DNA of 64,000 nt from Ruminococcaceae bacterium R-25 (GTDB taxonomy: Bacteria; Bacillota; Clostridia; Saccharofermentanales; Saccharofermentanaceae): the NCBI GenBank assembly GCA_003149065.1, contig QGFZ01000002.1, forward strand, positions 124,001 through 188,000. Direction: 5' to 3'. Position 1 is the first letter of the stretch, and each line of letters starts with the position of its first letter. Below the pieces are notes generated by a model, which was not told the origin of the DNA, did no database searches, and saw nothing but the letters and a program-made list of their open reading frames with translations. A program made the position numbers and the translations under genes. Below, in pieces: positions 4,246-64,000 of the stretch.

Positions 4246-4273
4246 TGTTACGCGTGTGTGTTTTTTATATAAT
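4245..4273 (+). promoter_or_regulatory. Promoter of the P-type ATPase gene
   Basis: TTGTTA (4245-4250), 17-base spacer, TATAAT (4268-4273). The implied 5' leader is only about 30 bases, so there is no room for a magnesium riboswitch of the kind often found before mgtA. Confidence 0.6.
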
Positions 4274-52918: not shown

Positions 52919-53941
52919 ATGGCAGAGAAGTATATCGTCATAGCAAATAAGCTCGAATTAGAGCTCAAGAAAATGAGGGCGGAGGGAAGGCTTAGACTCC
53001 CTTCGGAAAACTCTCTGGCTGAAAAATACTCCTGCAGCAGACAGACGGTCCGCGCAGCATTGGATATCCTCTTGAAGGCCGGCCTTATCGAAAAGCGCAC
53101 CGGCTCCGGATCTTATATAGTAGAAGAATCTCATAAGAATAAAACTGTATTTTTTATTACCGAAGACTGCGACAGATATCTGAGCCCGTTGCTTATAGCC
53201 GGATTAAGGTCAGCACTCGCGTCATCGAAATACACACTTCAGGCATTCTCTACCTCCGGCAGCAGCAAAGAAGAAGGCGTTGCTATTTCGCGCGCTATCA
53301 AAGAGAAAGCCGCGGCTGTCATAATCGAACCCGCGCACGACCTCATCCCAAATGCAAACGGGAGACTGATCGAAGAAGCAATAGGCGCCCTGATACCGGT
53401 TATCTATCTGAATTCATCCAGTGCACCTTCGGGCGTTATAAGTATCGCGCCTGATTACAGGGAAGCAGGGAAGGTCCTTACCGAAAAGCTTAAGGGAGAG
53501 GGCAGGCGCAAGACTGCCTGCATCTTCTGCACAGATAATTCTTCAGGCATGGACGAATACAAGGGTTATATCGATGAGGTCAGTTCATTTGACGAGAGCA
53601 GATGCCTGCTGCTTTCCTACAAGGAAGAAAAAGAGATCCTCGAAGGGAAACATGATCTGTTAACTTCATTTATCGATACACTCTCTGACTGCGATTCCGT
53701 GATCTGCGAAAACGGCATGATCGCGCACAGCCTTGCAGGTCTTCTTAATAAGCGCGATATTAAAGTTCCGGACGACATAACCGTCGCGTGCTTTGACAAC
53801 GGTTATTATTCAAATGATTCCATAATTTCCATGGGTTACGATACTGACCTTCTTTGCAAAAAGCTCGCAAAAACATGCGTTGCTCTTGCAGAAGGCGGCA
53901 ATTACAAAGAATTTGCTGTCCCTGTGGCAGTTATAGAGTAA
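52919..53941 (+). CDS. GntR-type winged helix fused to LacI-type sugar-sensing domain (AraR-like)
   Basis: A 340-residue repressor-type regulator. Residues 1-70 form a GntR winged helix (LPSENSLAEKYSCSRQTVRAALDILLKAGLIEKRTGSGSYI). Residues 75-340 form a LacI/periplasmic-binding-like domain with ALASSKYTLQAFSTSGSSKEEGVAISRAI and VPDDITVACFDNGYY. This is the domain order of B. subtilis AraR, which is released from DNA by L-arabinose. Divergent from the transport/kinase/araD operon, so it is the obvious candidate regulator. The ATG at 52919 has AAGGGG eight bases upstream; the frame opens with a TTG at 52913. Confidence 0.9.
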   Translation: MAEKYIVIANKLELELKKMRAEGRLRLPSENSLAEKYSCSRQTVRAALDILLKAGLIEKRTGSGSYIVEESHKNKTVFFITEDCDRYLSPLLIAGLRSALASSKYTLQAFSTSGSSKEEGVAISRAIKEKAAAVIIEPAHDLIPNANGRLIEEAIGALIPVIYLNSSSAPSGVISIAPDYREAGKVLTEKLKGEGRRKTACIFCTDNSSGMDEYKGYIDEVSSFDESRCLLLSYKEEKEILEGKHDLLTSFIDTLSDCDSVICENGMIAHSLAGLLNKRDIKVPDDITVACFDNGYYSNDSIISMGYDTDLLCKKLAKTCVALAEGGNYKEFAVPVAVIE

Positions 53942-53994
53942 GCAGATAGTTTTTCACTTACTTTGAAACATCGTTTAAATAATTAAACCCTGGA

Positions 53995-54083
53995 TTTTAC
54001 ACCACTTTGAAATTATTATAATTTGGTGTAAAAAAAGCCCTGTTTTTTACACCAAACTGAAATAATATCGTTTTGGTGTAAAA
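53995..54083. repeat. Two-unit palindrome array (39-base units, 50-base period)
   Basis: Two units, 53995-54033 and 54045-54083, each with arms TTTTACACCA and TGGTGTAAAA around a 19-base centre, separated by 11 bases. The arms are identical between units; the centres share only part (TTGAAATTATT against CTGAAATAATA). They lie between the regulator and the following gene, with no open frame. A further TTTTACAC is at 54175. Confidence 0.7.
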
Positions 54084-54138
54084 CGCAGTATGAATAGCAC
54101 AGATTTACGCCTGAAATTCTCAAAGAAAAATTAGAAAC

Positions 54139-54178
54139 AGTCTCAACTTTTGCTCCAGCAGCAGATTGAGACTCTTTT
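54139..54178 (+). terminator. Terminator-like hairpin before the nuclease-like gene
   Basis: AGTCTCAA (54139-54146) pairs with TTGAGACT (54166-54173), followed by CTTTTA. It may end the regulator transcript. Confidence 0.5.
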
Positions 54179-54231
54179 ACACTAGGCGGGACCATATAAT
54201 TAAGCAACTTAATCGAAAGGGGCGGTTCTAT

Positions 54232-55020
54232 ATGGTTAATAATCATGGCGAAGAGATGCGCAAAAGAAGTGAACTTATAATGAAGACTTTGGAAGCGTTG
54301 GATAAGAAGATAGAATCTTTCCCTGATGGCAGGATCAAGATAAAGAAATGCAAAAGCGGAGTGTATCACTATCTTTCCATAAAAGGGAAAAAGGACCGGC
54401 TGCTTAATGAGAACGAAACAGACCTCATCAGGGATTTGATCCAGAAAAGTTATCTCAAGCAAATGAGGGTTTCCTTAAGATCCGAACTGAAAGCATTGAG
54501 CAGGATGCAGAAAATCTATCCTTCTGTTATTGCAGAAGATCTGTTTGATCAGCTTTCTGAAGAACGGAAAGCGTTTGCGAAGCCGGCAATGGTCGGTGAT
54601 GAGGATTTTGCCCGTAAGTGGATGCAAATGCCTTATAAGCGAAAACCGTTTAAGAAAGATGCGCCATACTATCTAACCATCAAGGGCGAAAGAGTCAGAT
54701 CAAAGTCGGAAGTGATTATCGCTAACAGGCTGTATTTTAAGGGGATTCCATATAAGTACGAATGCCCGCTTAAAGTCGGGAACAAGATCATTCATCCGGA
54801 TTTTACGATTCTCAGACTAAGCGATTGCAGCGTGGTCTATTACGAACATTGCGGAAAGATGGACGATGAGACCTATATGGATGATCTGGTCGAAAGAGTC
54901 AATGATTACAGCGAAGCAGGAATCCTGCAGGGAGACAGACTTTTCTTTTCGTTTGAAACCTCGAAAAAGCCGTTAGACTTGAGAACTGTAGACAAACTTA
55001 TCGATCGTTATTTTAGATGA
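54232..55020 (+). CDS. PD-(D/E)XK nuclease-like protein
   Basis: A 262-residue cytosolic protein. The N-terminal two-fifths is basic and helical. The C-terminal part (about 145-260) has VRSKSEVIIANRLYFKGIPYKYECPLKVG, IHPDFTILRLSDCSVVYYEHCGKMDD, and ILQGDRLFFSFETSKKPLD. The order Glu in SEV, Asp in HPDF and Glu-His in YEHCG resembles the PD-(D/E)XK nuclease core with an E-x-H variation. The role is unknown; no methyltransferase or helicase gene adjoins it. AGGGG lies 11 bases before the ATG. It is flanked by the 53995 palindrome array. Confidence 0.65.
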   Translation: MVNNHGEEMRKRSELIMKTLEALDKKIESFPDGRIKIKKCKSGVYHYLSIKGKKDRLLNENETDLIRDLIQKSYLKQMRVSLRSELKALSRMQKIYPSVIAEDLFDQLSEERKAFAKPAMVGDEDFARKWMQMPYKRKPFKKDAPYYLTIKGERVRSKSEVIIANRLYFKGIPYKYECPLKVGNKIIHPDFTILRLSDCSVVYYEHCGKMDDETYMDDLVERVNDYSEAGILQGDRLFFSFETSKKPLDLRTVDKLIDRYFR

Positions 55021-55026
55021 AGAATA

Positions 55027-56004
55027 TCAGTATTCTCTCGAATCTACGAAATCCTGCGTGATGCTCTGCGTTGTATAAGCGGATTCGTTGACGTGGACCT
55101 GCTTCGGGATCGTTTCGCCTTTTCTGTATTTTTCAATGAGCTCTTTGATCTGCGGGCCGAACATCGGGTTGCACTCGACACAGAGATTTATCTTGCCGTC
55201 GTGGCAGTACTGGAGAGCTTCTTTTGTGGCGTCGAAAGTAATGATCTTCACCTGACCGCCGTTGCCGTAAGTGATACCGGCTTCGTTGAGCGCGCGCATT
55301 GCGCCAAAGGTCATGTTGTCGTTTTCGGAATAGAGGACATTGATGTCCTTGTTTGTCTTAAGATATTCGGTCATGACCTCATAAGCCTTGGCTTCGGTGA
55401 AGTCGCCGTAGAGCTGGCTCGTGATCTCCCAGTTGGAGTGCTTGGCTACTGCATCTTCCAATGCCTTTGTTCTCATGATCTGGGCGGTTGCACCAAGCGT
55501 TCCCTGGAGGTGGAGGATCTTTGCTTCCTTGTCTGCAGGGATCTCTCCTTCGAGCCATTTGACGGCGAGGTTGCCCTGACCCAAAAAGTCGGAACCGATG
55601 TTGGTTAGATACAGCGAATCATCGTCAACTGCGACGGATCTGTCCATGATTATTACAGGAATTCCGGCATCCTTGATCTCTTCCAGGATCGTCTGCCAGC
55701 CTTCTTCAACTGTGGGCGCGATGATTATAAAATCGACTCCTTCGAGGATGAAGCGGCGGATTGCGGTGAACTGGTTTTCCTGTTCCTGTCTCGCATTTTC
55801 CATGATGAATTCATATTCCGGGTCGTTTGCGAAAGTAGCTTCCATGGACTTGGTGTTTGCGACTCTCCAATCGGACTCGGAACCGATCTGCGAAAAGCCG
55901 ATCACATATGCTTTGTTGGAAGGCTCAGCCGGTTTGGTTCCCAGGCATCCTGCCATGCATAAGATCATGCTTAAGCAAAGTAAAACACTACAGAATCGTT
56001 TCAT
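55027..56004 (-). CDS. Sugar-binding lipoprotein, likely sensor of the three-component system
   Basis: A 325-residue type I periplasmic-binding-fold lipoprotein (lipobox CMAGC, Cys19). AYVIGFSQIGSESDWRVANTKSMEATF, FIIIAPTVEEGWQTILEEIKDAGIPVIIMDR and YSENDNMTFGAMRALNEAG are very like the YtfQ-type protein at 51443. Unlike that one, it has no ABC genes of its own and overlaps the histidine kinase gene by 17 bases. I infer it presents the sugar to the kinase, as XylFII does for LytS in Clostridium beijerinckii. Confidence 0.88.
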   Translation of the reverse strand: MKRFCSVLLCLSMILCMAGCLGTKPAEPSNKAYVIGFSQIGSESDWRVANTKSMEATFANDPEYEFIMENARQEQENQFTAIRRFILEGVDFIIIAPTVEEGWQTILEEIKDAGIPVIIMDRSVAVDDDSLYLTNIGSDFLGQGNLAVKWLEGEIPADKEAKILHLQGTLGATAQIMRTKALEDAVAKHSNWEITSQLYGDFTEAKAYEVMTEYLKTNKDINVLYSENDNMTFGAMRALNEAGITYGNGGQVKIITFDATKEALQYCHDGKINLCVECNPMFGPQIKELIEKYRKGETIPKQVHVNESAYTTQSITQDFVDSREY

Positions 56005-57424
56005 TGTTTATGTCCGCCTTCCCGGGTATTTCGATGCTTATATAAGTTCCTTCCTGCGGCACGGACTCGATATCGAATTTGCATGCATCGCCGTAAAGGA
56101 TCTTCAGTCTCTTATAAGATGATGTGAGACCGAAGCTCGTCGTGTCCTCATTAAGTACTCTTGTCTTTAAGCTCTCCAGTTCTTCTTTCTGCATGCCAAG
56201 ACCCGTGTCTGTTACCTTAAGGACGATCTTGTCTCCTTCGAGAGTTCCGGTTACCTTGATCTTACCCTTGCCGCGCTTAGGCTTAAGGCCGTGATAGATA
56301 GCATTTTCGACGAGCGGCTGCAAAGTCATTTTCGGGAGCTTCGTGTTTTCGATCGCAGGATCGATGTCGATCTCAAATTCCATGATATCCCTGTATCGTA
56401 CCTGCTGTATCTCGAGGTAACTCTGGATGTGCTGTTTTTCTTCGGCGAGCGTTACGATATCCTTACCGTCGCTTAAGAATGAGCGGAAATAAGATGAAAG
56501 GCTCGTTACCATCTGTTCTGCCTGATCGTTCTTGCCGATCTCGATGAGCCAGACGATCGCGTCCAAAGTGTTGTACAGGAAGTGAGGATTGATCTGCGCC
56601 TGGATGAGTGAGAGCTCGATGTCGCGGAGCTTGATCTGCTCTTCGCGGTTTAACTGGATCTGCTTATCGAGTCTTGCCGCCATGTCTTCGATACCGGTGG
56701 AGAGGAGCGCGAGGCTCGTATCGTCGGTCTTTACGGGAGTGTGGGGGCTTAAGTCGCCGTCACCGATCTCCTTAACGCGGCCGTTCATTTCAACGATAGG
56801 ATCAGTGATACTTTTCGAGAGCTTGACCGCACGGCTCAAAACGAGAGGGACTACAACGAGCATGACCAGGACGACGAACACGATTTCGATACTGAGCCAG
56901 AAATCGATCTGCTTCTGGATGCTCGCCATCTCGCCGGCCTCGTAGTAGAGGTAAGAATACATGTAGTCTTCGATGAGGCCCGTTGTGATGTAGATATTTT
57001 TCGTGAGCTGGTCCATACGGTTGTCGTAACTCGTTGTGCTCTCAATATCGTGCATGTATGAGCTTAACTTATCGCAGAGTGAGAGAACGCTAGTAATGGA
57101 TTTGCGGCCTTCGGAATTTGACGTGTTTTTCAACAGGTCTTCAGCGAGGGCTCTTGCGGATTCGACGTCGTCCCACGGCATCTCATCGCTGTATCCCGTT
57201 ACGTAGAAATACATCTGCTCATCGATCTCCTGCTTAAACTTCTGGTTGAAGCCGGATACCTTGACGATGTTTCCCGATACCGATGCGTACATGAGGTTAC
57301 GTGTAAGTAGCATTACGAAAATGCTGACGAGAATGACAGCAATCGGGATAAACATCTGAAGCATAAGACGGTACATTTTTCCCTGTACCGTATTCTTGTT
57401 TAACCTGTCGGGCGGACGTCTCAT
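55988..57424 (-). CDS. Sensor histidine kinase, LytS/YesM type
   Basis: A 478-residue membrane kinase. Two helices (about 24-45 and 177-198) bracket an extracellular region of about 130 residues, followed by a HAMP domain (about 200-255). The phospho-acceptor region is QAQINPHFLYNTLDAIVWLI and the ATP site has LQPLVENAIYHGLKPKRGKGKI and DTGLGM. This is the His_kinase group of YesM/LytS. It overlaps the response-regulator stop by four bases and the sugar-binding gene by 17. Confidence 0.93.
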   Translation of the reverse strand: MRRPPDRLNKNTVQGKMYRLMLQMFIPIAVILVSIFVMLLTRNLMYASVSGNIVKVSGFNQKFKQEIDEQMYFYVTGYSDEMPWDDVESARALAEDLLKNTSNSEGRKSITSVLSLCDKLSSYMHDIESTTSYDNRMDQLTKNIYITTGLIEDYMYSYLYYEAGEMASIQKQIDFWLSIEIVFVVLVMLVVVPLVLSRAVKLSKSITDPIVEMNGRVKEIGDGDLSPHTPVKTDDTSLALLSTGIEDMAARLDKQIQLNREEQIKLRDIELSLIQAQINPHFLYNTLDAIVWLIEIGKNDQAEQMVTSLSSYFRSFLSDGKDIVTLAEEKQHIQSYLEIQQVRYRDIMEFEIDIDPAIENTKLPKMTLQPLVENAIYHGLKPKRGKGKIKVTGTLEGDKIVLKVTDTGLGMQKEELESLKTRVLNEDTTSFGLTSSYKRLKILYGDACKFDIESVPQEGTYISIEIPGKADINNETIL

Positions 57425-59034
57425 TCTTCAGGAATTTCCCCGTTGCGGTACTGGCTCGGCGTGCATCCCTGATTCTTCTTGAATACGAATGAGAAATATC
57501 TGGGATCCTTGTAGCCGATCTCGTTCGCGATCTCGCCACTCTTCTTGCTCGTGTTGCGCAGGAGGATCTTAGCCTTGGCCATTCTCTTTTTGGTGATATA
57601 TTCGACGAAGGATAATCCGACCTTGTTGGAGAAGACGGCGCTCAAATAGTTCGCGCTGATATTGATCTCCTCTGCAACGGAATCAAGAGAGATATCCTCG
57701 TCCGCATAATGTTCATTGATGTAATCGACGGCATTGTTGATGATGTCGTTTCCGCGCTTCTGCGCTTCAGCGTCCCTCATCTTGATCGCAACATTAAGTG
57801 CGTCGATAAGATAGCCCTTAACCTCGTCTGCCTGAATGTTCGTGTCGAACGTCGGCAGGCTCGAAGAGATCAGTTCCGAATCAACATTAGCTTCCTTCAA
57901 AGCAAGTTCGACATTGACCCTGATGCTGACCAGAAGATAGTAGCGGAACAGGATCGAATTGACGCTCGCCTCAACGCTCTTAAGGTAGTCGTCGGCAAAT
58001 GTCTCGACTTCGTTTATCGTACCTGTCTGCACGAAATATCTTATGATCATGGGATCGAACTTGCCCGCATCGATCTGGTGTATCTCGCTGTCATTTGCAA
58101 CGAACTGTTCGGTTTTTAACTGCTCGGAAGTAAAGATGTGCTGGTTAGGGAAGATGTGTCTGTATGCAAATGCCCTGTTCGCATCCTGATAGCATGAAGA
58201 AAGTCCGCTCAGTCTGTTTGTCGGTGCGCCGACCGCAACGTGCCAGTCGAGCTGCGACGGAGTCTCTTCGCAGTGCTGCATTATCATCTTTACGCACTTG
58301 TCTTCCATTCGCTTGACGCTCTCGTCGTCGCCCTTGATGAGGACGGCATATGAAAAGAGGTTGCATCTGAAGATGATATAATCCGGATACTGCATGAACT
58401 GGTTAAGAAGGCTCTCTGTAACGCCCGATGCGTTGTCCGAATATGTCGACTGGTCAAGGTCCCTGATAGAGAAGATGACGATGTTATAAGCGTCTGCGGA
58501 AAGATTGAGATGGAGCTTGTCTGCCTCTTCGTAGATCTCCTGTACTGACAGTGATCCTTCTACGAGCTTCTCGAAAAATACTCTGTGCGTTAATCTCTCG
58601 AACTTCTTGAACTCCTGCTCGTAGAGCTTTACGTAGTCTTTCTGTTCGTTCTCTTCGGTGATCTTTTTTCTGACGCCTTCAAGGGCATTGATCATGTCGG
58701 TCTTGGTGACGGGCTTTAAGAGATACTGCTCGACGCCGATCTCTATCGCTTTTCGCGCGTACTCAAAATCGCTGTAACCGGAGATAACAATGATCTTTAT
58801 ATTAGGCAATTCCTTCGTGACGGTTTTGCTCAATGAAAGGCCGTCCATGAAGGGCATGGTGATATCGGTGATGAGGACATCGGGCTTAAGCTTTCTGATC
58901 ATGGGCAGGGCCATCTCGCCGTCAGGCGCATCGCCTGCGAACTCGAAACCGTACTTCTCCCACGGGATCATGTCGCGAAGTCCTTCGCGCACGATACTCT
59001 CGTCTTCACAAATAAAAACCTTAAAAAGATCCAT
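57421..59034 (-). CDS. Response regulator, AraC type, YesN-like
   Basis: A 537-residue regulator. The receiver domain (about 4-122) has CEDESIVREGL, the phosphorylated Asp57 in DVLITDITMPFMDG and Lys in YLLKPV. A long middle part leads to a C-terminal AraC-type HTH (about 435-535: ISANYLSAVFSNKVGLSFVEYITKKRMAKAKILL, then GEIANEIGYKDPRYFSFVFKKNQGCTPSQYR). The ATG at 59034 has GGAGG seven bases upstream. First gene of the sensing operon; it probably activates a sugar-uptake operon, perhaps the adjacent one. Confidence 0.93.
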   Translation of the reverse strand: MDLFKVFICEDESIVREGLRDMIPWEKYGFEFAGDAPDGEMALPMIRKLKPDVLITDITMPFMDGLSLSKTVTKELPNIKIIVISGYSDFEYARKAIEIGVEQYLLKPVTKTDMINALEGVRKKITEENEQKDYVKLYEQEFKKFERLTHRVFFEKLVEGSLSVQEIYEEADKLHLNLSADAYNIVIFSIRDLDQSTYSDNASGVTESLLNQFMQYPDYIIFRCNLFSYAVLIKGDDESVKRMEDKCVKMIMQHCEETPSQLDWHVAVGAPTNRLSGLSSCYQDANRAFAYRHIFPNQHIFTSEQLKTEQFVANDSEIHQIDAGKFDPMIIRYFVQTGTINEVETFADDYLKSVEASVNSILFRYYLLVSIRVNVELALKEANVDSELISSSLPTFDTNIQADEVKGYLIDALNVAIKMRDAEAQKRGNDIINNAVDYINEHYADEDISLDSVAEEINISANYLSAVFSNKVGLSFVEYITKKRMAKAKILLRNTSKKSGEIANEIGYKDPRYFSFVFKKNQGCTPSQYRNGEIPEE

Positions 59035-59152
59035 CAGCTGCCCTCCGTTAACATACCCTAATTCTAACACAGGGGCAAAAGCATAGTCTTTACATAATTT
59101 TATTAATTAAGTGCAATATCTTTATTTCCGCGTGGATTTAAAAGCTTCGGTG

Positions 59153-59158
59153 TATAAT
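59153..59158 (+). promoter_or_regulatory. -10 element of the acetyltransferase gene
   Basis: TATAAT, 20 bases before the ATG at 59179. No convincing -35 hexamer at 16-18 bases. Confidence 0.4.
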
Positions 59159-59178
59159 GATTTCTGAGGTATAGATCT

Positions 59179-59724
59179 ATGGTTTTTAACACGAAAGTCA
59201 CCGACAAAACAGGCAAAGAAATAGAGCTCCGAAACGCTGAATTAAAGGACGCGGAGGCTCTTTTGAATTATCTTAAAGTCACTAATACTGAATCGAAATA
59301 TCTCATCTGCGAACCCGATGAGATCACCATGACTTTGGATGACGAAAAGGCTTTTATCACGCGCAAGACCGAGTCTGAGAATGAGCTCCTTCTGCTCGCT
59401 TTTGAAGACGGAAAACATATCGGCAACTGCTCTCTCATGAGTGTCGGAACTTCCACAAGATATAAGCACAGATGCACTATTGCAATTGCCCTGTATAAGG
59501 CTTACTGCGGCAGGGGGATCGGCAGGCTGATGTTGGAGACCGTTTTGAGCGAAGCAAAAAAACTCGGCTACGGACAAGCAGAGCTTGAGGTCGTAACCGA
59601 GAATCTTGGTGCTATAGCGCTTTATGAAGCTGTTGGTTTTGTTAAGTGCGGCGTGCTCCCGAACAGTATGAAATACAGGGATGGCACGACTGTCGATTCT
59701 TACTGGATGGTAAAGATCCTTTAA
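59179..59724 (+). CDS. GNAT family N-acetyltransferase
   Basis: A 181-residue acetyltransferase. IAIALYKAYCGRGIGRLMLETVLSEAKKLG is the acetyl-CoA site and LEVVTENLGAIALYEAVGFVKCGVLPNSMKY the C-terminal motif; the latter with KYRDGTTVDSYWMVKIL is like the SpeG/PhnO group, but the substrate is unknown. GAGG is nine bases before the ATG. Its stop overlaps that of the convergent MFS gene by four bases. Confidence 0.88.
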   Translation: MVFNTKVTDKTGKEIELRNAELKDAEALLNYLKVTNTESKYLICEPDEITMTLDDEKAFITRKTESENELLLLAFEDGKHIGNCSLMSVGTSTRYKHRCTIAIALYKAYCGRGIGRLMLETVLSEAKKLGYGQAELEVVTENLGAIALYEAVGFVKCGVLPNSMKYRDGTTVDSYWMVKIL

Positions 59725-60986
59725 GCTGTTTCGACCTGTGTGGCTGCGGGCTCGTCCGTGTTTTCGAGCTCTCTGATCTTCTTGATACCGGACATTGCGA
59801 CTGCGACGATTATGAGGCAGATGCCTGCGCCGATTATCGTTATTGAAGATCCTGTGCCGACGCCCTTTCCTGTTGCCTTGCCGATCACGTCAGCGGTAAC
59901 GCCGCTAAGTGAATAAGCGACGACATATCCGAGCTGTGAGATGAATCCCAGGAAGCCCCATGCGCGGCCCTGGAGTTCAGCGGGAATGTTGGTCCTTACG
60001 AGATAATCGAGGCTGTTGTTTGCAAAAGGCAGAGCTGCGAAGAATAAGAATCCGAATGAGCAGATGAGCACGGGATTCTCGAAAACAGCGAACAGCGACA
60101 TTCCGACACCTGATACCGCAAGGCCCATCCAGAGCGCCCTTACGAAGTGCTTCTTGATGCCTCTGATGCCTAAGAGGATGCTTGTTACGAGCATGCCTGA
60201 AGCTGCCACCGTCTCAACGATTCCCAATGTTTTTGAATCAGAGAATGAGAGCACGAAAGGCTCGCCCAATACCTGGAACACGCCCATGAATAGGCAGATC
60301 AGGGAAGATACGACTACGAGAACGATAAGGCCCTTCTTTGCAGTAACTGCTGCCAAGCCTTCCTTCATGCTCTTGAAGAACGGCTCCGGTTCACTCTTAA
60401 CGCTTGTCTTGATGCCTGCTCTTACAACTGCGGCGGCAACGACTGTAAGGAAGAATGTGCAGATGTCGATTATAAGGATCAGCTTGATGTCGCTTACTGC
60501 AAGAATGAAGCCTGCGATGATAGGCGAGAAGATGTATCTTGATGAACCTGCCATCGATACAAGACCGTTAGCCTTTGAGTACTGTTCCTTTGTGAGGAGG
60601 TCTGTAATCGTTGCTGTATAAGAGGGCTCCAGAAGTGCCGAGAAAACAGAGCTTACCGTGGTGCCGAGATATATCTGCCAGAGTGCTGCTTCTCCCTGAA
60701 GCATGCAAATGAGGATGAAGAGAACGCCAAGACCTGATAAGCCGTCGCCGATCATCATGAGAAGTCGTCTGTCATAGCGGTCAGCAAGAACACCTGCAGG
60801 AACTCTGAGGATCAATGCCGGAAGGAATCCCAGAAGTGTGAGGAACGCCATGTCTGCAGCACTTCCCGTTTTCTGGAAAATATAAAGGCCAAGGCCGAAG
60901 CTTGTAAGTCCGCCGCCTATCGATGAAATGAATTCGCCCGCCCAGAGCAGGAGGAATCTTCCGTAATTGTTGTTTGTCTTTGTCAT
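59721..60986 (-). CDS. MFS transporter, macrolide-efflux-like
   Basis: A 421-residue major facilitator protein with 12 hydrophobic segments. FISSIGGGLTSFGLGLYIFQKTGSAADMAFL at the N-terminus, VLADRYDRRLLMMIGDGLSG as the loop 2-3 signature, and QLGYVVAYSLSGVTADVI late in the protein fit the MefA/enterobactin-exporter-like branch. The substrate is unknown and no resistance is claimed. It ends four bases into the convergent acetyltransferase gene. Confidence 0.9.
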   Translation of the reverse strand: MTKTNNNYGRFLLLWAGEFISSIGGGLTSFGLGLYIFQKTGSAADMAFLTLLGFLPALILRVPAGVLADRYDRRLLMMIGDGLSGLGVLFILICMLQGEAALWQIYLGTTVSSVFSALLEPSYTATITDLLTKEQYSKANGLVSMAGSSRYIFSPIIAGFILAVSDIKLILIIDICTFFLTVVAAAVVRAGIKTSVKSEPEPFFKSMKEGLAAVTAKKGLIVLVVVSSLICLFMGVFQVLGEPFVLSFSDSKTLGIVETVAASGMLVTSILLGIRGIKKHFVRALWMGLAVSGVGMSLFAVFENPVLICSFGFLFFAALPFANNSLDYLVRTNIPAELQGRAWGFLGFISQLGYVVAYSLSGVTADVIGKATGKGVGTGSSITIIGAGICLIIVAVAMSGIKKIRELENTDEPAATQVETA

Positions 60987-61127
60987 CTTGAATGACCGCC
61001 TTTTCGATATTGTTGACTATACTCTATCGTGCCCGTCGCGGTAAATCTTGAGTTATTCCTTGAATAATCCTTAAATGTTTCTTAAATCGGCGCGTGCGCT
61101 CTTTAATGCAATAAAAGATTTTTCTGT

Positions 61128-61133
61128 TATAAT
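61128..61133 (+). promoter_or_regulatory. -10 element of the putP gene
   Basis: TATAAT, 32 bases before the ATG. The -35 region is poor (AATGCA at 17 bases). Confidence 0.4.
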
Positions 61134-61165
61134 ACGGGAGTTATCAATCCCCAAAGGAGTATGTT

Positions 61166-62713
61166 ATGGACAAGATTATTGCTTTCGTACTCTATTTCGT
61201 GGTTGTCCTTGCCATCGGTATATTCTTCTTCATAAAGAGTAAGGGCGGCGACGAGAAAGAGTATTTCCTTGGCGGTCGTCACATGGGTCCTTTTGTTACT
61301 GCGATGAGTGCGCAGGCATCGGACATGAGCGGCTGGCTTTTGATGGGTTTCCCGGGTTCGCTTTTTGCGTTCGGTATGGGACAGGTTTGGATCGGAATCG
61401 GTCTGGCATTAGGAACAGCTGCCAACTGGATCTTTGTAGCTACAAGGCTCCGCCGTTTCTCCAAAGCTTCCGGCGACTCCATCACGCTTCCCCAGTACCT
61501 CACAAACAGATTCGCAAGCCAGAGCTCGGTTCTGAAGGTCGTATGCGCTATCATCTTCCTTATCAGCTTCACGGTTTACGTAGCTTCAGGCTTCGTTGCA
61601 GGTACTGCAGTATTCACATCAGTTATCCCGTGGTTTGCAGATCATCAGCACCTCGCTATGATCCTCTTTGCGGTTTTGATCCTTATCTATACATTTTTAG
61701 GCGGTTACAAGGCTGTTTGCTGGACAGACTTTTTCCAGGGCCTCATGATGCTCGTTGCGCTTCTCGCAGTTCCGATCGTTATGCAGGCAGTCGGCAGCCA
61801 CGATGCTTCCTTCTACGGTGCGTTCAATAGTGAAGTTTCCGCTTTTGGCACAGATCCTTTCGCAGCTCCCTGGCAGGAGATCGTTACGGGTCTTGGCTGG
61901 GGCTTAGGTTACTTCGGTATGCCTCATATCCTCGTACGTTTCATGTCCATCGAGAAGCCTTCCCAGATTAAGAAGTCTGCTACAGTTGCAATTATCTGGG
62001 TAATTCTCACTTTAGGCGCTGCTGCAGTTATCGCTTACCTCGGAAGAACTTACATTCTTCCCAACGGCGAATCACTTGCTGAGATGCTCCTTCCTGACGC
62101 ACGTAAGAACATCTTCATCGAAGTTGTTACACACATCTTCCCGGGCTTCATCGCAGGCATTTTGCTCTCGGCTATCATCGCTGCCGCAATGTCTACGGCT
62201 GACTCCCAGCTCCTCGTTGCATCTTCCGCATTTACGAGCGATATCTATAAGCCTTTGATCCGTAAGAACAAGGCTTCCGATTCAGAGATGCTCTGGCTTG
62301 GCCGTGTCGTCGTTCTTGTAGTTGCTATCGTCGCTTTCTTCATCGCTGTTCAGGGTCTTGACGATCCCAAGTCCTGGGCTTCCGACATCATGAACATGGT
62401 TGAGAACGCATGGGGTCTCTTCGGCGCAGCCTTCGGACCTGTCGTTATCCTCTCACTGTTCTGGAAGCGCTTTAACTACAAGGGCGCTGTTGCAGGCATC
62501 ATTGCAGGCGCCGTTGCCGACATCGCTTGGCTCCTTCTCTTCACAGACACGATCATGCCTGCCGCTATTAGCAGCACAGGTGTTTATGAGATTGTTCCCG
62601 GCTTCATCTGCGGTCTTATCGTTGCAATTATCGTTACAGTTGTAACAAAGGCTCCGGGCAAGGAAGTCGAAGCAATCTACGCAAGAGCTACAGATAAGTC
62701 CATCGACGACTGA
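61166..62713 (+). CDS. putP: Sodium/proline symporter
   Basis: A 515-residue member of the sodium:solute symporter family with 13 helices. EYFLGGRHMGPFVTAMSAQASDMSGWLLMGFPGSLFAFG is the PutP-specific N-terminal sodium and proline region; FLGGYKAVCWTDFFQG and SAIIAAAMSTADSQLLVASSAFTSDIY follow. It imports proline with Na+. Length matches E. coli PutP (502). AAAGGAG is six bases before the ATG. A strong terminator follows, so it is a single-gene unit. Confidence 0.95.
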   Translation: MDKIIAFVLYFVVVLAIGIFFFIKSKGGDEKEYFLGGRHMGPFVTAMSAQASDMSGWLLMGFPGSLFAFGMGQVWIGIGLALGTAANWIFVATRLRRFSKASGDSITLPQYLTNRFASQSSVLKVVCAIIFLISFTVYVASGFVAGTAVFTSVIPWFADHQHLAMILFAVLILIYTFLGGYKAVCWTDFFQGLMMLVALLAVPIVMQAVGSHDASFYGAFNSEVSAFGTDPFAAPWQEIVTGLGWGLGYFGMPHILVRFMSIEKPSQIKKSATVAIIWVILTLGAAAVIAYLGRTYILPNGESLAEMLLPDARKNIFIEVVTHIFPGFIAGILLSAIIAAAMSTADSQLLVASSAFTSDIYKPLIRKNKASDSEMLWLGRVVVLVVAIVAFFIAVQGLDDPKSWASDIMNMVENAWGLFGAAFGPVVILSLFWKRFNYKGAVAGIIAGAVADIAWLLLFTDTIMPAAISSTGVYEIVPGFICGLIVAIIVTVVTKAPGKEVEAIYARATDKSIDD

Positions 62714-62736
62714 TCTGTTTCCACTCATGTTTTTAC

Positions 62737-62770
62737 CGGCCCTGAGGTTCGCTTCAGGGCCGTTTTTATT
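62737..62770 (+). terminator. Intrinsic terminator of putP
   Basis: CGGCCCTGA (62737-62745) pairs with TCAGGGCCG (62754-62762), followed by TTTTTATT. Confidence 0.9.
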
Positions 62771-62797
62771 GGGCGTTTTTGGGGTGTTATTGGTGTG

Positions 62798-63051
62798 ACG
62801 GACTAATTTTATGTTTTTGGTTTTTTAGTACGTAATTTTTGAGGCTTTAGTTGGCTTCCCAGGATTTTTTACGTACTAATTTTCGAAAATGCATTATTAG
62901 TCCGTAACTATTTGGAAAATAGCTGCCACAGAAGGCTGATTTTACGTACTAATCTTTAAAGACGCATTTTTAGTACGTCGAATTGGTCATATAACGCGAG
63001 TTGAAGGGTGAAAACTACGTACTAATTTTAGTGTTTGAGTTTTTAGTACGT
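62798..63051. repeat. Four-unit palindrome array with an exact 73-base period
   Basis: Units at 62798-62833, 62871-62905, 62944-62978 and 63017-63051 start exactly 73 bases apart. Each is an inverted repeat with arms ACGKACTAAT and ATTAGTMCGT (the first and second carry one G-for-T change in one arm), 35-36 bases long. The centres differ, and the 37-38-base stretches between units are unique apart from weak end similarity. No open frame is credible here. It fills the gap between putP and a convergent kinase gene. Not a CRISPR: the repeats are conserved only in the arms. Confidence 0.75.
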
Positions 63052-63067
63052 CATAGTTGTAGTGTGT

Positions 63068-63103
63068 CATACGAAAATAAACGTAAATCTACCTTTTCGT
63101 ATG
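63068..63103. repeat. Perfect palindrome sharing arms with the 24728 element
   Basis: CATACGAAAA (63068-63077) and TTTTCGTATG (63094-63103), perfect ten-base arms around 16 bases, directly after the four-unit array. The same CATACGAAAA arm occurs at 24915 and, as TTTTCGTATG, at 24759; GTCGG follows the arm both here and at 24949. Confidence 0.65.
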
Positions 63104-63134
63104 TCGGCCCGAAAAAACAAAAACCACCAAAAAA

Positions 63135-63168
63135 CAAACGGCCTCAAAGAAAACTTCAAGGCCGTAAC
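63135..63168 (-). terminator. Intrinsic terminator of the histidine kinase gene
   Basis: On the minus strand CGGCCTTGAAG pairs with CTTTGAGGCCG (63139-63164), followed by TTTGTTTTTT. It lies 23 bases past the kinase stop. Confidence 0.8.
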
Positions 63169-63190
63169 ACTACTAATAGATTCAAATCAC

Positions 63191-64000
63191 TCAGAATGAG
63201 ACTTTTATCGTCATGCTCTTGCCGTCGGGGCAGATTGCTTTGATCGAGCCGCCGTGAGCTTCGGCAACGGCCTTGGCGATCGCGAGGCCTACGCCTGTGC
63301 CGCCGGTCTCAGTATTACGGGAACTGTCAGGGCGGTAGAAGCGGTCGAACAAAAGATCAACGTCCGGCGGAGTTTCGTAATTGCAGGTGTTGTAGACTTC
63401 GATTCTGGCCTTGTTCTTCTTGGAATAGACGGAGAATCTGATCTCGCCTCCCTTGTCGGAATAGCGGACGGCGTTATCGAGGAGAACGGACATCATCTGC
63501 TGGATGCCGGCCTTGTCGCCAAAGACATCAACGTTCTCGGAAATATCAACTGTCATCTTTTTGCCGCGGCCCTTTGCCTGTGACTGGTAGATATCGACGG
63601 TCTCCCATGCGGCGTTGCTTAATGAGAAGCGCTCCTTGTTTGGCAGAGGGAGGTCTTCATCGAGCCTGGATAAGGTGACGAGTTCGCTGACGAGCTTTGT
63701 CATGCGGCCTGTCTGCTTCTTGATATTGTCGGTCCATTCATCGTCGCCGTGCTCTGCCGTAATGACGTCGAGGCTCGTGGAGATGGACGTCAGAGGGGTC
63801 TTGAGCTCGTGGCTCGCGTCGGTGATGAACTGTTTTTGCTGCTTGATGTTGTTTTCGATAGGCTTGATCGCTTTCTTGGATATGATCACGACAAGGATGA
63901 AAACAAGTGTAAGACTTAAGACAGAGATGATTATGGACAGATCCAGGAGAGACTTTGCGATCTGGAGTTCTCTGCTGGCATTAAGGAAAATGATGACCGT
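63191..64000 (-). CDS. Sensor histidine kinase, C-terminal part (runs off the window)
   Basis: The frame is open to the last base of the window, so the N-terminus lies outside; 269 residues are visible. A membrane helix (LLDLSIIISVLSLTLVFILVVII, near 63890-63960) is followed by the HisKA domain with the acceptor His in DASHELKTPLTSIS and the ATP-binding domain with MSVLLDNAVRYSDKGGEIRF, DRFYRPDSSRNTETGGTGVGLAIAKAVAEAHGG. It is the OmpR-partner (HisKA) type, different from the LytS-type kinase at 55988. A cognate regulator gene is expected upstream, beyond the window. Confidence 0.92.
   Translation of the reverse strand, partial: TVIIFLNASRELQIAKSLLDLSIIISVLSLTLVFILVVIISKKAIKPIENNIKQQKQFITDASHELKTPLTSISTSLDVITAEHGDDEWTDNIKKQTGRMTKLVSELVTLSRLDEDLPLPNKERFSLSNAAWETVDIYQSQAKGRGKKMTVDISENVDVFGDKAGIQQMMSVLLDNAVRYSDKGGEIRFSVYSKKNKARIEVYNTCNYETPPDVDLLFDRFYRPDSSRNTETGGTGVGLAIAKAVAEAHGGSIKAICPDGKSMTIKVSF

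What the first reader, a model, noticed from the sequence alone, without database searches (positions are those of the whole stretch)
62798..63051. Four palindromes at an exact 73-base period between putP and a kinase gene
Units of 35-36 bases start at 62798, 62871, 62944 and 63017, each with ACGKACTAAT/ATTAGTMCGT arms. The arms are held while the centres and the intervening 37-38 bases vary, including paired one-base changes (ACGGACT and AGTCCGT). That is what selection on a hairpin or protein-bound dyad, rather than on sequence, would leave. The spacing resembles a CRISPR but the repeat type does not. It could be a protein-binding array, a transcribed hairpin array, or a minisatellite with a palindromic core.
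Basis: seen in the sequence. Interest (0 to 1): 0.72.

Follow-up and report, generated by a model that had tools for sequence, protein, structure and literature searches.

The report
Nuclease genes with private palindrome arrays
The four evenly spaced palindromes look like a dispersed copy of a target-site array that belongs to one member of an unnamed family of nuclease-like genes, many of which carry their own, differently spelled array in front of them, so that gene and DNA site seem to evolve as matched pairs.

Summary
The array is real: four 35-36 bp units at exactly 73 bp; 0 of 5000 shuffles give one unit. The claimed paired arm changes are not: position 4 varies independently on the two sides in 97 units, so this looks like a protein-read DNA dyad, not a hairpin. 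The genome holds at least 8 arrays, 32 units. One lies 25 bp from the start of a 266-aa gene with no Pfam family. Of 60 same-genus relatives of that gene read, 46 have upstream an inverted half-site array, mostly in their own spelling, against 0 of 60 shuffles, 0 of 83 other same-genus genes and 11 of 500 genes of other taxa. Array period follows protein subfamily (73 versus 52 bp) and falls on whole helical turns. One such gene and its array lie in the window (53995-55020). The protein ends in a PD-(D/E)XK-like domain. Best reading: each protein binds its array cooperatively, probably controls itself, and array copies spread between genes, REP/RAYT-like in logic but with another enzyme. Binding, cleavage and mobility are untested.

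The parts
62798..62833 (.). unit 1 of the array, ACGGACTAA-N18-TTAGTACGT (36 bp)
62871..62905 (.). unit 2, ACGTACTAA-N17-TTAGTCCGT (35 bp); an identical 35-mer lies in the C3:33247 array of the same genome
62944..62978 (.). unit 3, ACGTACTAA-N17-TTAGTACGT (35 bp)
63017..63051 (.). unit 4, ACGTACTAA-N17-TTAGTACGT (35 bp)
62737..62762 (+). GC-rich hairpin followed by a T run (terminator-like) after putP; it goes along with the array in the copies at other loci (in the C3:33k copy only its 3' part aligns)
63068..63103 (.). palindrome with other arms (CATACGAAAA-N16-TTTTCGTATG) directly beside the array; its arms are not upstream of any of the six full-length copies read in this genome
53995..54033 (.). 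unit 1 of a second array, TTTTACACCA-N19-TGGTGTAAAA (39 bp)
54045..54083 (.). unit 2 of the second array (39 bp), starting 50 bp after unit 1
54232..55020 (+). 262-aa member of the nuclease-like family, with the TTTTACACCA array just upstream (G000:C2:178232-179020)
61166..62713 (+). putP-type sodium symporter gene, left neighbour
63191..64000 (-). histidine kinase gene, right neighbour, running off the window
   Evidence: named from its sequence by me, not searched

Best explanation
Shown: the genus of this genome, and some other Clostridia families, carry a multicopy family of ~262-aa proteins with a variable N-terminal half and a conserved C-terminal PD-(D/E)XK-like domain. Most of the same-genus copies read have, just upstream, an array of inverted half-sites, mostly in their own spelling; array period follows protein subfamily and equals whole helical turns. 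Three of these half-site families are also seen dispersed in this genome, without the gene, at other places, most of those looked at being intergenic; the window array is such a copy of the family whose gene is at G000:C1:63455-64252. Inferred: each protein binds its half-sites, two per palindrome, and neighbouring palindromes on one face of the helix are bound cooperatively; bound upstream, it controls its own gene. Inferred with less certainty: nicking or cutting at the arrays drives their tandem growth and their copying into other gaps by recombination, so protein and arrays behave as a selfish pair, as RAYT transposases and REPs do, but on double-stranded phased arrays and with another enzyme.
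For: Dispersal: at least 8 arrays, 32 units in G000; 97 units in 5 genomes, gap between units exactly 38 bp in 43 of 68 intervals, 17 in 6, 59 in one, steps of 21 bp. Linkage: array score >=6 upstream of 45 of 60 same-genus copies as first scored, 46 of 60 after one region read at the wrong place was corrected; 0 of 60 shuffles, 0 of 83 other same-genus genes and 11 of 500 genes of other taxa. Subfamily: in the tree of 56 proteins, 20 of 20 labelled members of one clade have 73-75 bp, 20 of 22 of the other 50-53 bp; label changes 2-3 against about 14 in shuffles, 0 of 500 as low. Helix: 37 unlike arrays, periods 50-54, 63-64, 72-75 and 83 with one at 58.5, Rayleigh R 0.82, p about 2e-11 at 10.5 bp (not corrected for shared descent). 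Arm and protein similarity correlate, rho 0.27, 0 of 1000 permutations. Arms conserved between orthologous arrays: 3.4% differ against 17.4% and 12.3%. Arms read at gene-free loci were then found upstream of a copy in the same genome: GCATACC in G007, CAGATACA in G015 (same contig), ATAATTATATAA in G000. Mobility: G019 holds an array where G000's orthologous gap has 58 other bases. Outside the genus: 11 of 28 full-length copies score >=6, and a Lachnospiraceae locus found by its arms holds a full-length homologue. Nuclease: E160, D190, E205 invariant and K/R222 in 28 of 28; 28 of 28 match PDC-S68 C-termini, 11 of 28 HEAT_CxxC_PDDEXK; residues 140-262 align to Bax1 (Z 8.0), ngo0050, PspGI and DrdV.
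Against: 14 of 60 same-genus and 17 of 28 other-family copies have no array by this score; four distant same-genus copies (G003, G016, G054, G073) show none, nor do the 3 read in family f5. Scores of 6-7 also occur by chance (11 of 500). Several dispersed families lack a cognate gene among the copies read: CATACGAAAA in G000, GTTGACG in G006, CAATTGTT in G042, CGGACACA and GGTGAC in G007 (5 of 7 copies read), ACGGGTAA in G022 (8 of 10 read). G002 carries ACGGACTAA arrays, but its best copy has CATATAAG arms. G040's copy, 79% identical to that of C1:63455, has other arms (ACCTACAG). Gene and array could be linked by autoregulation alone, with dispersed copies as ordinary regulatory sites. No terminal repeats or target duplication define a mobile unit. 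No binding, cleavage, expression or transposition data exist here. Fold matches are middling: Foldseek gives nothing at E<=0.001, and a mitoribosomal protein scores as high as Bax1 over the same residues (Z 8.1).
Confidence: 0.7

Rival explanations
1. A self-regulating DNA-binding protein family whose nuclease fold serves only binding; dispersed arrays are its regulatory or insulating sites, for instance roadblocks between convergent genes.
For: Arrays sit upstream of the genes, last half-site a median 61 bp from the nominal start in 45 same-genus copies. Of 26 family-1 arrays with neighbours tabulated (of 29), 11 lie between convergent, 10 between codirectional and 5 between divergent genes, by mechanical ORFs. 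Arms and spacing are conserved.
Against: E160, D190, E205 are invariant and K/R222 is in 28 of 28, not expected of a dead nuclease. The neighbours of the 8 G000 arrays form no obvious regulon by my reading. Half-site spelling differs between close relatives at the same gap.
Confidence: 0.3
2. An anti-phage nuclease held on, or controlled by, its own arrays and released or induced on infection.
For: The C-terminal domain is shared with PADLOC candidates PDC-S68 (28 of 28) and HEAT_CxxC_PDDEXK (11 of 28) and with the ends of long proteins in 9 viral contigs. Copy number varies between species.
Against: Widespread in the genus: 57 of 58 genomes have a match at E<=0.001, 45 of 58 a best match at E<=1e-20 (my count). 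No defence neighbours were sought; PADLOC matches cover only the C-terminus.
Confidence: 0.15
3. Transcribed RNA hairpins (mRNA 3' stabilisers or attenuators).
For: Palindromic; 11 of 26 arrays lie between convergent genes; the window array follows a terminator-like hairpin.
Against: No covariation at position 4 in 97 units; mirrored inner positions pair at or below expectation; no Rfam match; array period follows a protein phylogeny.
Confidence: 0.04
4. Chance local duplication or minisatellite with a palindromic core.
For: Two G019 arrays are four near-identical 73-bp copies, so tandem duplication occurs.
Against: Arms are held while centres and spacers diverge; like periods occur with unrelated spellings; a strict array finder gave 0 in 1.99 Mb of 238 loci from other taxa and viruses, though it also missed the L176 units.
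Confidence: 0.01

Closest known systems
REP/REPIN elements with RAYT (Y1, HUH) transposases
   Same: A gene with its own family of short palindromes beside it, repeat-specific pairs in one genome, and dispersed intergenic copies (REP side: passages of PMC3733652).
   Different: No fixed GTAG or CGTC tag, no Y1 transposase in G000, G007, G019 or G022, no sign of pairing selection, arrays at whole helical turns, and a PD-(D/E)XK-like rather than a HUH protein.
PD-(D/E)XK nucleases of the Bax1/DUF790 kind
   Same: C-terminal fold (Z 8.0, rmsd 2.9, 95 residues to 6p4w_B) and a basic residue in the motif IV helix where motif III lacks its lysine, as reported for DUF790 (passages of PMC1913061). That Bax1 is DUF790 is recalled.
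   Different: Pfam DUF790 hits only 4 of 28 members weakly (best E 0.015); no XPB partner is implied; no relation of the N-terminal half to Bax1 was found.
PDC-S68 candidate defence proteins (PADLOC)
   Same: The same C-terminal domain (28 of 28 members, best E 1.3e-28).
   Different: PDC-S68 models are 1202-1273 positions long; this family is ~262 aa and lacks the large N-terminal part.
Autoregulated tandem operators, plasmid iterons (recalled)
   Same: Repeated sites in helical register upstream of the gene of their binding protein.
   Different: Here the sites are inverted half-sites dispersed over the chromosome, and the protein has a nuclease-like domain. Iterons were not tested.

Membership tests
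REP/RAYT | GTAG or CGTC tag at one end of the palindrome | tested here: not met
   71 unique 35-bp units: arms ACGKACTAA/TTAGTMCGT; the base after the right arm's CGT is A in 82%, C in 18%, so no fixed tag
REP/RAYT | Y1 (HUH) transposase in the genome | tested here: not met
   PF01797: none in G000, G007, G019, G022; one interrupted match in G002
REP/RAYT | palindrome acts as a single-strand hairpin (pairing conserved) | tested here: not met
   no covariation at position 4; pairing not above expectation
REP/RAYT | repeats beside a dedicated gene and dispersed elsewhere | tested here: met
   but with a gene of another superfamily
PD-(D/E)XK nuclease superfamily | acidic triad E / D / E with a basic residue in motif III or IV | tested here: met
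   E160, D190, E205 invariant and K/R222 in 28 of 28
PD-(D/E)XK nuclease superfamily | restriction-endonuclease-like core fold | tested here: inconclusive
   model pLDDT 82.6, pTM 0.55; residues 140-262 align to several such nucleases at Z 5.9-8.0 but also to a mitoribosomal protein at 8.1; Foldseek nothing at E<=0.001
PD-(D/E)XK nuclease superfamily | nuclease activity | not testable with these tools
   needs purified protein
CRISPR array | near-identical direct repeats separated by unique spacers | tested here: not met
   only the arms are conserved, centres vary; cas genes were not sought
PDC-S68 defence protein | ~1200-aa protein with a C-terminal nuclease domain | tested here: not met
   262 aa; only residues 143-261 match profile positions 1096-1219 of the best model
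Known structured RNA | match to an Rfam family | tested here: not met
   0 matches in window 53800-64000 at gathering scores
Plasmid iteron / partition site | bound by a replication or partition protein | not tested
   no such gene sought

The most novel reading that the evidence does not exclude
A previously unrecognised class of gene-plus-site elements in Clostridia: PD-(D/E)XK-like proteins that each read a private 7-10 bp half-site code laid out in helically phased inverted arrays, regulate themselves through them and spread the arrays through the genome. Period is set by the protein subfamily, and spelling turns over so fast that close species carry unrelated codes at the same gap. The paralogues would be a natural library of DNA-recognition pairs.
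Probability: 0.5. Interest if true: 0.92.

Novelty: categorically new. Interest (0 to 1): 0.85.

Why it matters
If right, palindromes that would pass as anonymous repeats gain an owner: in genomes with this gene family the private site code can often be read from the gene's own upstream DNA. It would be a second, independent case of a protein living with its own palindrome family, on a different enzyme and on double-stranded DNA, and it makes the question of how such pairs change specificity testable, since dozens of protein-site pairs, from over 90% to about 30% identical in protein, can be compared. It also shows a bare spacing rule, whole helical turns set by protein subfamily, that predicts how the complex is built.

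Tried and rejected
RNA hairpin array: rejected on lack of covariation and no Rfam match. REP/RAYT membership: rejected, no Y1 transposase in four of five array-bearing genomes. Phage or plasmid origin: a viral scan for the arms at array spacing gave one stretch, which looks like chance; plasmids gave 6 of 72,556 records, none covering 80% of the protein, four annotated as AAA ATPases, one as a RecQ helicase, one unannotated; phages 2 of 50,697 records, one near full-length on a 4.2-kb faecal contig with no array upstream. The genome contigs and viral scans used a pattern too loose; both stopped at 120 stretches, so they give no distribution; L063, L142 and L176 are those I took as real, the others I took as chance without checking each. 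Known protein family: no convincing Pfam, NCBIfam or PHROGs family, no PDB sequence relative.

Results and controls partly against me: the first gene control (261 genes in loci held mostly because of arrays) had 16 at score >=6; by my reading 12 of the 16 are known arrays seen from neighbouring genes and 4 (two places, L313 and L038) are not; I replaced it. There 11 of 500 genes of other taxa reach 6 or 7, so scores of 6-7 alone are weak; 37 of 60 family copies reach 8 or more, none of 583 controls does. The 60 copies are those I fetched of more than 150 matches, orthologues included; L437, L442 (not full-length members), L415 and L419 (edge or partial) were left out, as were second reads of the same copies. 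One region, G040:C35, was scored at the wrong place (3) and rescored (7). From the tree four proteins were dropped (G047:C12:121733, G040:C35, G067:C17 as short; G048:C79 for an odd end). In one search loci on the minus strand show the wrong side of RNase J and the output was cut, and three of eight loci do so too; gaps named here are only those seen. My notebook says 9 arrays in G000; recounting one search gives 8 (two lone stretches with 4 mismatches dropped). The shared element TGAGACNNGTCTCA near many copies looked like a common operator; of its 7 sites in G000, 3 lie upstream of family copies, 1 upstream of a distant relative, 3 are unexplained. Literature: eight searches, open-access PMC only, showed no description of these arrays or of this gene family with arrays in the listings; PMC3733652 and PMC1913061 were read as passages only, the rest as listings and abstract starts. 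Novelty rests on those searches alone.

Full report
1. The observation. The window (G000:C2:124001-188000) holds four units at 62798, 62871, 62944 and 63017, 36, 35, 35 and 35 bp long, starts 73 bp apart. All match ACGKACTAA-N17/18-TTAGTMCGT; 0 of 5000 dinucleotide shuffles of 62700-63190 contain one such unit.

2. It is a dispersed family. The own genome has at least 8 arrays with 32 units: C1:64277 (4 units), C1:69493 (4), C1:81043 (5), C1:1106221 (6, at 52, 52, 74, 52, 52), C2:186798 (window, 4), C3:33174 (4), C3:183793 (3), C4:55110 (2, 180 bp apart). Of 40 genomes, 5 match the arms (G000, G002, G007, G019, G022), all of the same genus. In 97 units from these 5 genomes the gap between units is exactly 38 bp in 43 of 68 within-array intervals (52 of 68 within one base), 17 in 6 and 59 in 1. 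17, 38 and 59 are steps of 21 bp, two helical turns.

3. It is read as DNA. In 71 unique 35-bp units with flanks, positions 1-9 and 27-35 are near-invariant apart from position 4 and its mirror 32; positions 16-18 and 24-26 hold no C and few G, and 10-12 few of either; pairing of mirrored positions does not exceed expectation. Left and right K/M states are independent in 97 units. In five orthologous arrays of G000 and G019, arms differ at 11 of 324 aligned sites, centres at 55 of 317, spacers at 67 of 546 (the putP pair aligns poorly and is included).

4. Arrays move, and spellings turn over. The window array and its upstream terminator-like hairpin have partial copies at C3:33k and, in G019, at three loci besides putP itself. 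The G019:C2:292k copy stands where the orthologous G000 gap has 58 other bases. At the putP gap the relatives whose gap was seen have other inverted half-sites: GTTGACG in G006, CAATTGTT in G042, CAGATACA in G015, while G019 has ACGKACTAA and G007 a single ACGGACTAA unit; at the RNase J gap G007 has CGGACACA, GGTGAC and GCATACC where G000 and G019 have ACGKACTAA. G042 has a PIN-like gene there, G022 another kind of repeat. A strict alternating-array finder found none in 1.99 Mb of 238 loci from other taxa and viruses, but it also missed the units of L176 described below.

5. The owner. The array at C1:64277 lies 25 bp from the start of a 266-aa gene without a Pfam family, likewise in G019 and G022 (26 and 32 bp). 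A search of 58 same-genus genomes, own included, with that protein gives a match at E<=0.001 in 57 and a best match at E<=1e-20 in 45 (my count). G000 has six copies in that listing (a profile search adds four weaker matches); the copies at C2:178253 (window 54232-55020) and C1:15455 lie right beside two other palindrome families already seen (TTTTACACCA; ATAATTATATAA). I read the DNA upstream of 60 same-genus copies. Score of the best alternating 8-mer chain: >=6 in 45 of 60 as first run and 46 of 60 after one correction, >=8 in 37 of 60; shuffles 0 of 60 at >=6; other same-genus genes 0 of 83; genes of other taxa 11 of 500 at 6-7, none higher. All six G000 copies have palindromes upstream, each in another spelling: ACGKACTAA, ACTGAAAT, TCGATACA, ATAATTATATAA (a single palindrome, array score 4), AAATTGCA and TTTTACACCA.

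6. The protein sets the spacing. A maximum-likelihood tree of 56 proteins splits in two; 20 of 20 labelled members of one side have array periods of 73-75 bp, and 20 of 22 of the other 50-53 bp (exceptions 58.5 and 72); 0 of 500 shuffles cluster as well. Labels come from the automatic score, and some at score 6 may be wrong. Outside the genus (196 class genomes searched, own and a few same-genus included, 32 with a match) I read all 28 near-full-length copies, from families f28, f17 and f5: 11 score >=6, all in f28 and f17, in about 8 distinct spellings, periods 52-54, 63-64, 74 and 83. Over 37 unlike arrays the periods fall on multiples of 10.5 bp (R 0.82, p about 2e-11, mean phase -0.2 bp); since two subfamilies supply most of them the points are not independent and the p-value is too small, but four separate period classes lie on the grid. 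Arm similarity follows protein identity weakly (Mantel rho 0.27, 0 of 1000, 43 proteins). One locus, found by its arms, is a Lachnospiraceae MAG (L176) with a full-length homologue (E 1e-62) and, after the gene, two ACTAA/TTAGT units with starts 84 bp apart and a third ~73 bp before by eye.

7. What the protein is. Alignment A1 (28 copies): residues 1-60 share 23% mean pairwise identity, 61-140 35%, 141-262 49%. RSKSE160, D190-F191 and E205-H206-x-G208 are invariant, and position 222 is K or R in 28 of 28. Motif III lacks its lysine; a move to the motif IV helix is described for DUF790 (PMC1913061, passages). PADLOC: the C-terminus of 28 of 28 matches PDC-S68, and 11 of 28 match HEAT_CxxC_PDDEXK. 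The model of the window protein (pLDDT 82.6, pTM 0.55) has an alpha-beta-alpha-beta end that aligns to Bax1 (6p4w, Z 8.0, rmsd 2.9, 95 residues), ngo0050 (Z 7.5), PspGI (6.1), DrdV (5.9) and XisH (5.9), but a mitoribosomal protein scores 8.1; the N-terminal half is a long helical hairpin with strands at its tip, whose matches are unspecific.

8. Mechanism. Shown: linkage of gene and spelling, spacing by subfamily, helical register, arm conservation, dispersal. Inferred: the variable N-terminal half, perhaps its stranded tip, reads the half-site; two half-sites 26 bp apart (about 2.5 turns) and units at whole turns make a cooperative filament or bridge; binding upstream controls the gene (last half-site a median 61 bp from the nominal start, 45 copies). 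Less sure: cutting or nicking at arrays drives their tandem growth (two G019 arrays of four near-identical copies) and their copying. The use of dispersed copies is open: they may serve the host.

9. Limits. 14 of 60 and 17 of 28 copies lack a scored array; at least five dispersed families have no owner among the copies I read; G000's CATACGAAAA palindrome at 63068-63103 is one of them. Protein and spelling can part company: G040's copy, 79% identical to the owner of the window's arms, has other arms. Most genomes are drafts, and G022:C73 looks like a stray contig. Gene neighbours rest on mechanical ORFs.

Noticed in passing
window 63068-63103: Palindrome CATACGAAAA-N16-TTTTCGTATG next to the array; the only exact copy in G000, G019, G007 and G042, with a degenerate relative beside the C3:33k array. 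Possibly a relic of a lost gene-array pair.
   Followed up: partly
L525-L531 (G000): Element TGAGACNNGTCTCA, often with a third AGTCTCA half-site, occurs 7 times in G000; 3 lie upstream of family copies and 1 upstream of a distant relative. It may be a shared control site.
   Followed up: partly
L303 4603-4856 and L311 5211-5464 (G019): Two arrays of four near-identical 73-bp units, i.e. recent tandem growth by exactly the array period.
   Followed up: no
L466-L474: Nine viral contigs with the same nuclease-like domain at the end of long open frames (747-1133 aa); the one read in full looks RecD-like to me.
   Followed up: partly
L317 (G022:C73): A 4.7-kb contig with a second close putP relative and a G019-type 35-bp array in a genome whose other arrays are 36 bp; probably a contaminating contig.
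   Followed up: no
L164, ORF starting at 4263 on the reverse-complement strand: Lachnospiraceae RUG13174: alternating AGTTCGTA half-sites at 29/24/30/23 bp upstream of a gene; the family profile matched nothing in this locus.
   Followed up: no
L331 (G022, after RNase J): Three ~55-bp direct repeats of another kind fill the gap that holds arrays in G000, G019 and G007.
   Followed up: no
L313 and L038: Two further alternating half-site pairs (ATACAGAA at 34/18/34, AAAAGTTG at 39/23/39) turned up in the gene control, with no family gene noted beside them.
   Followed up: no
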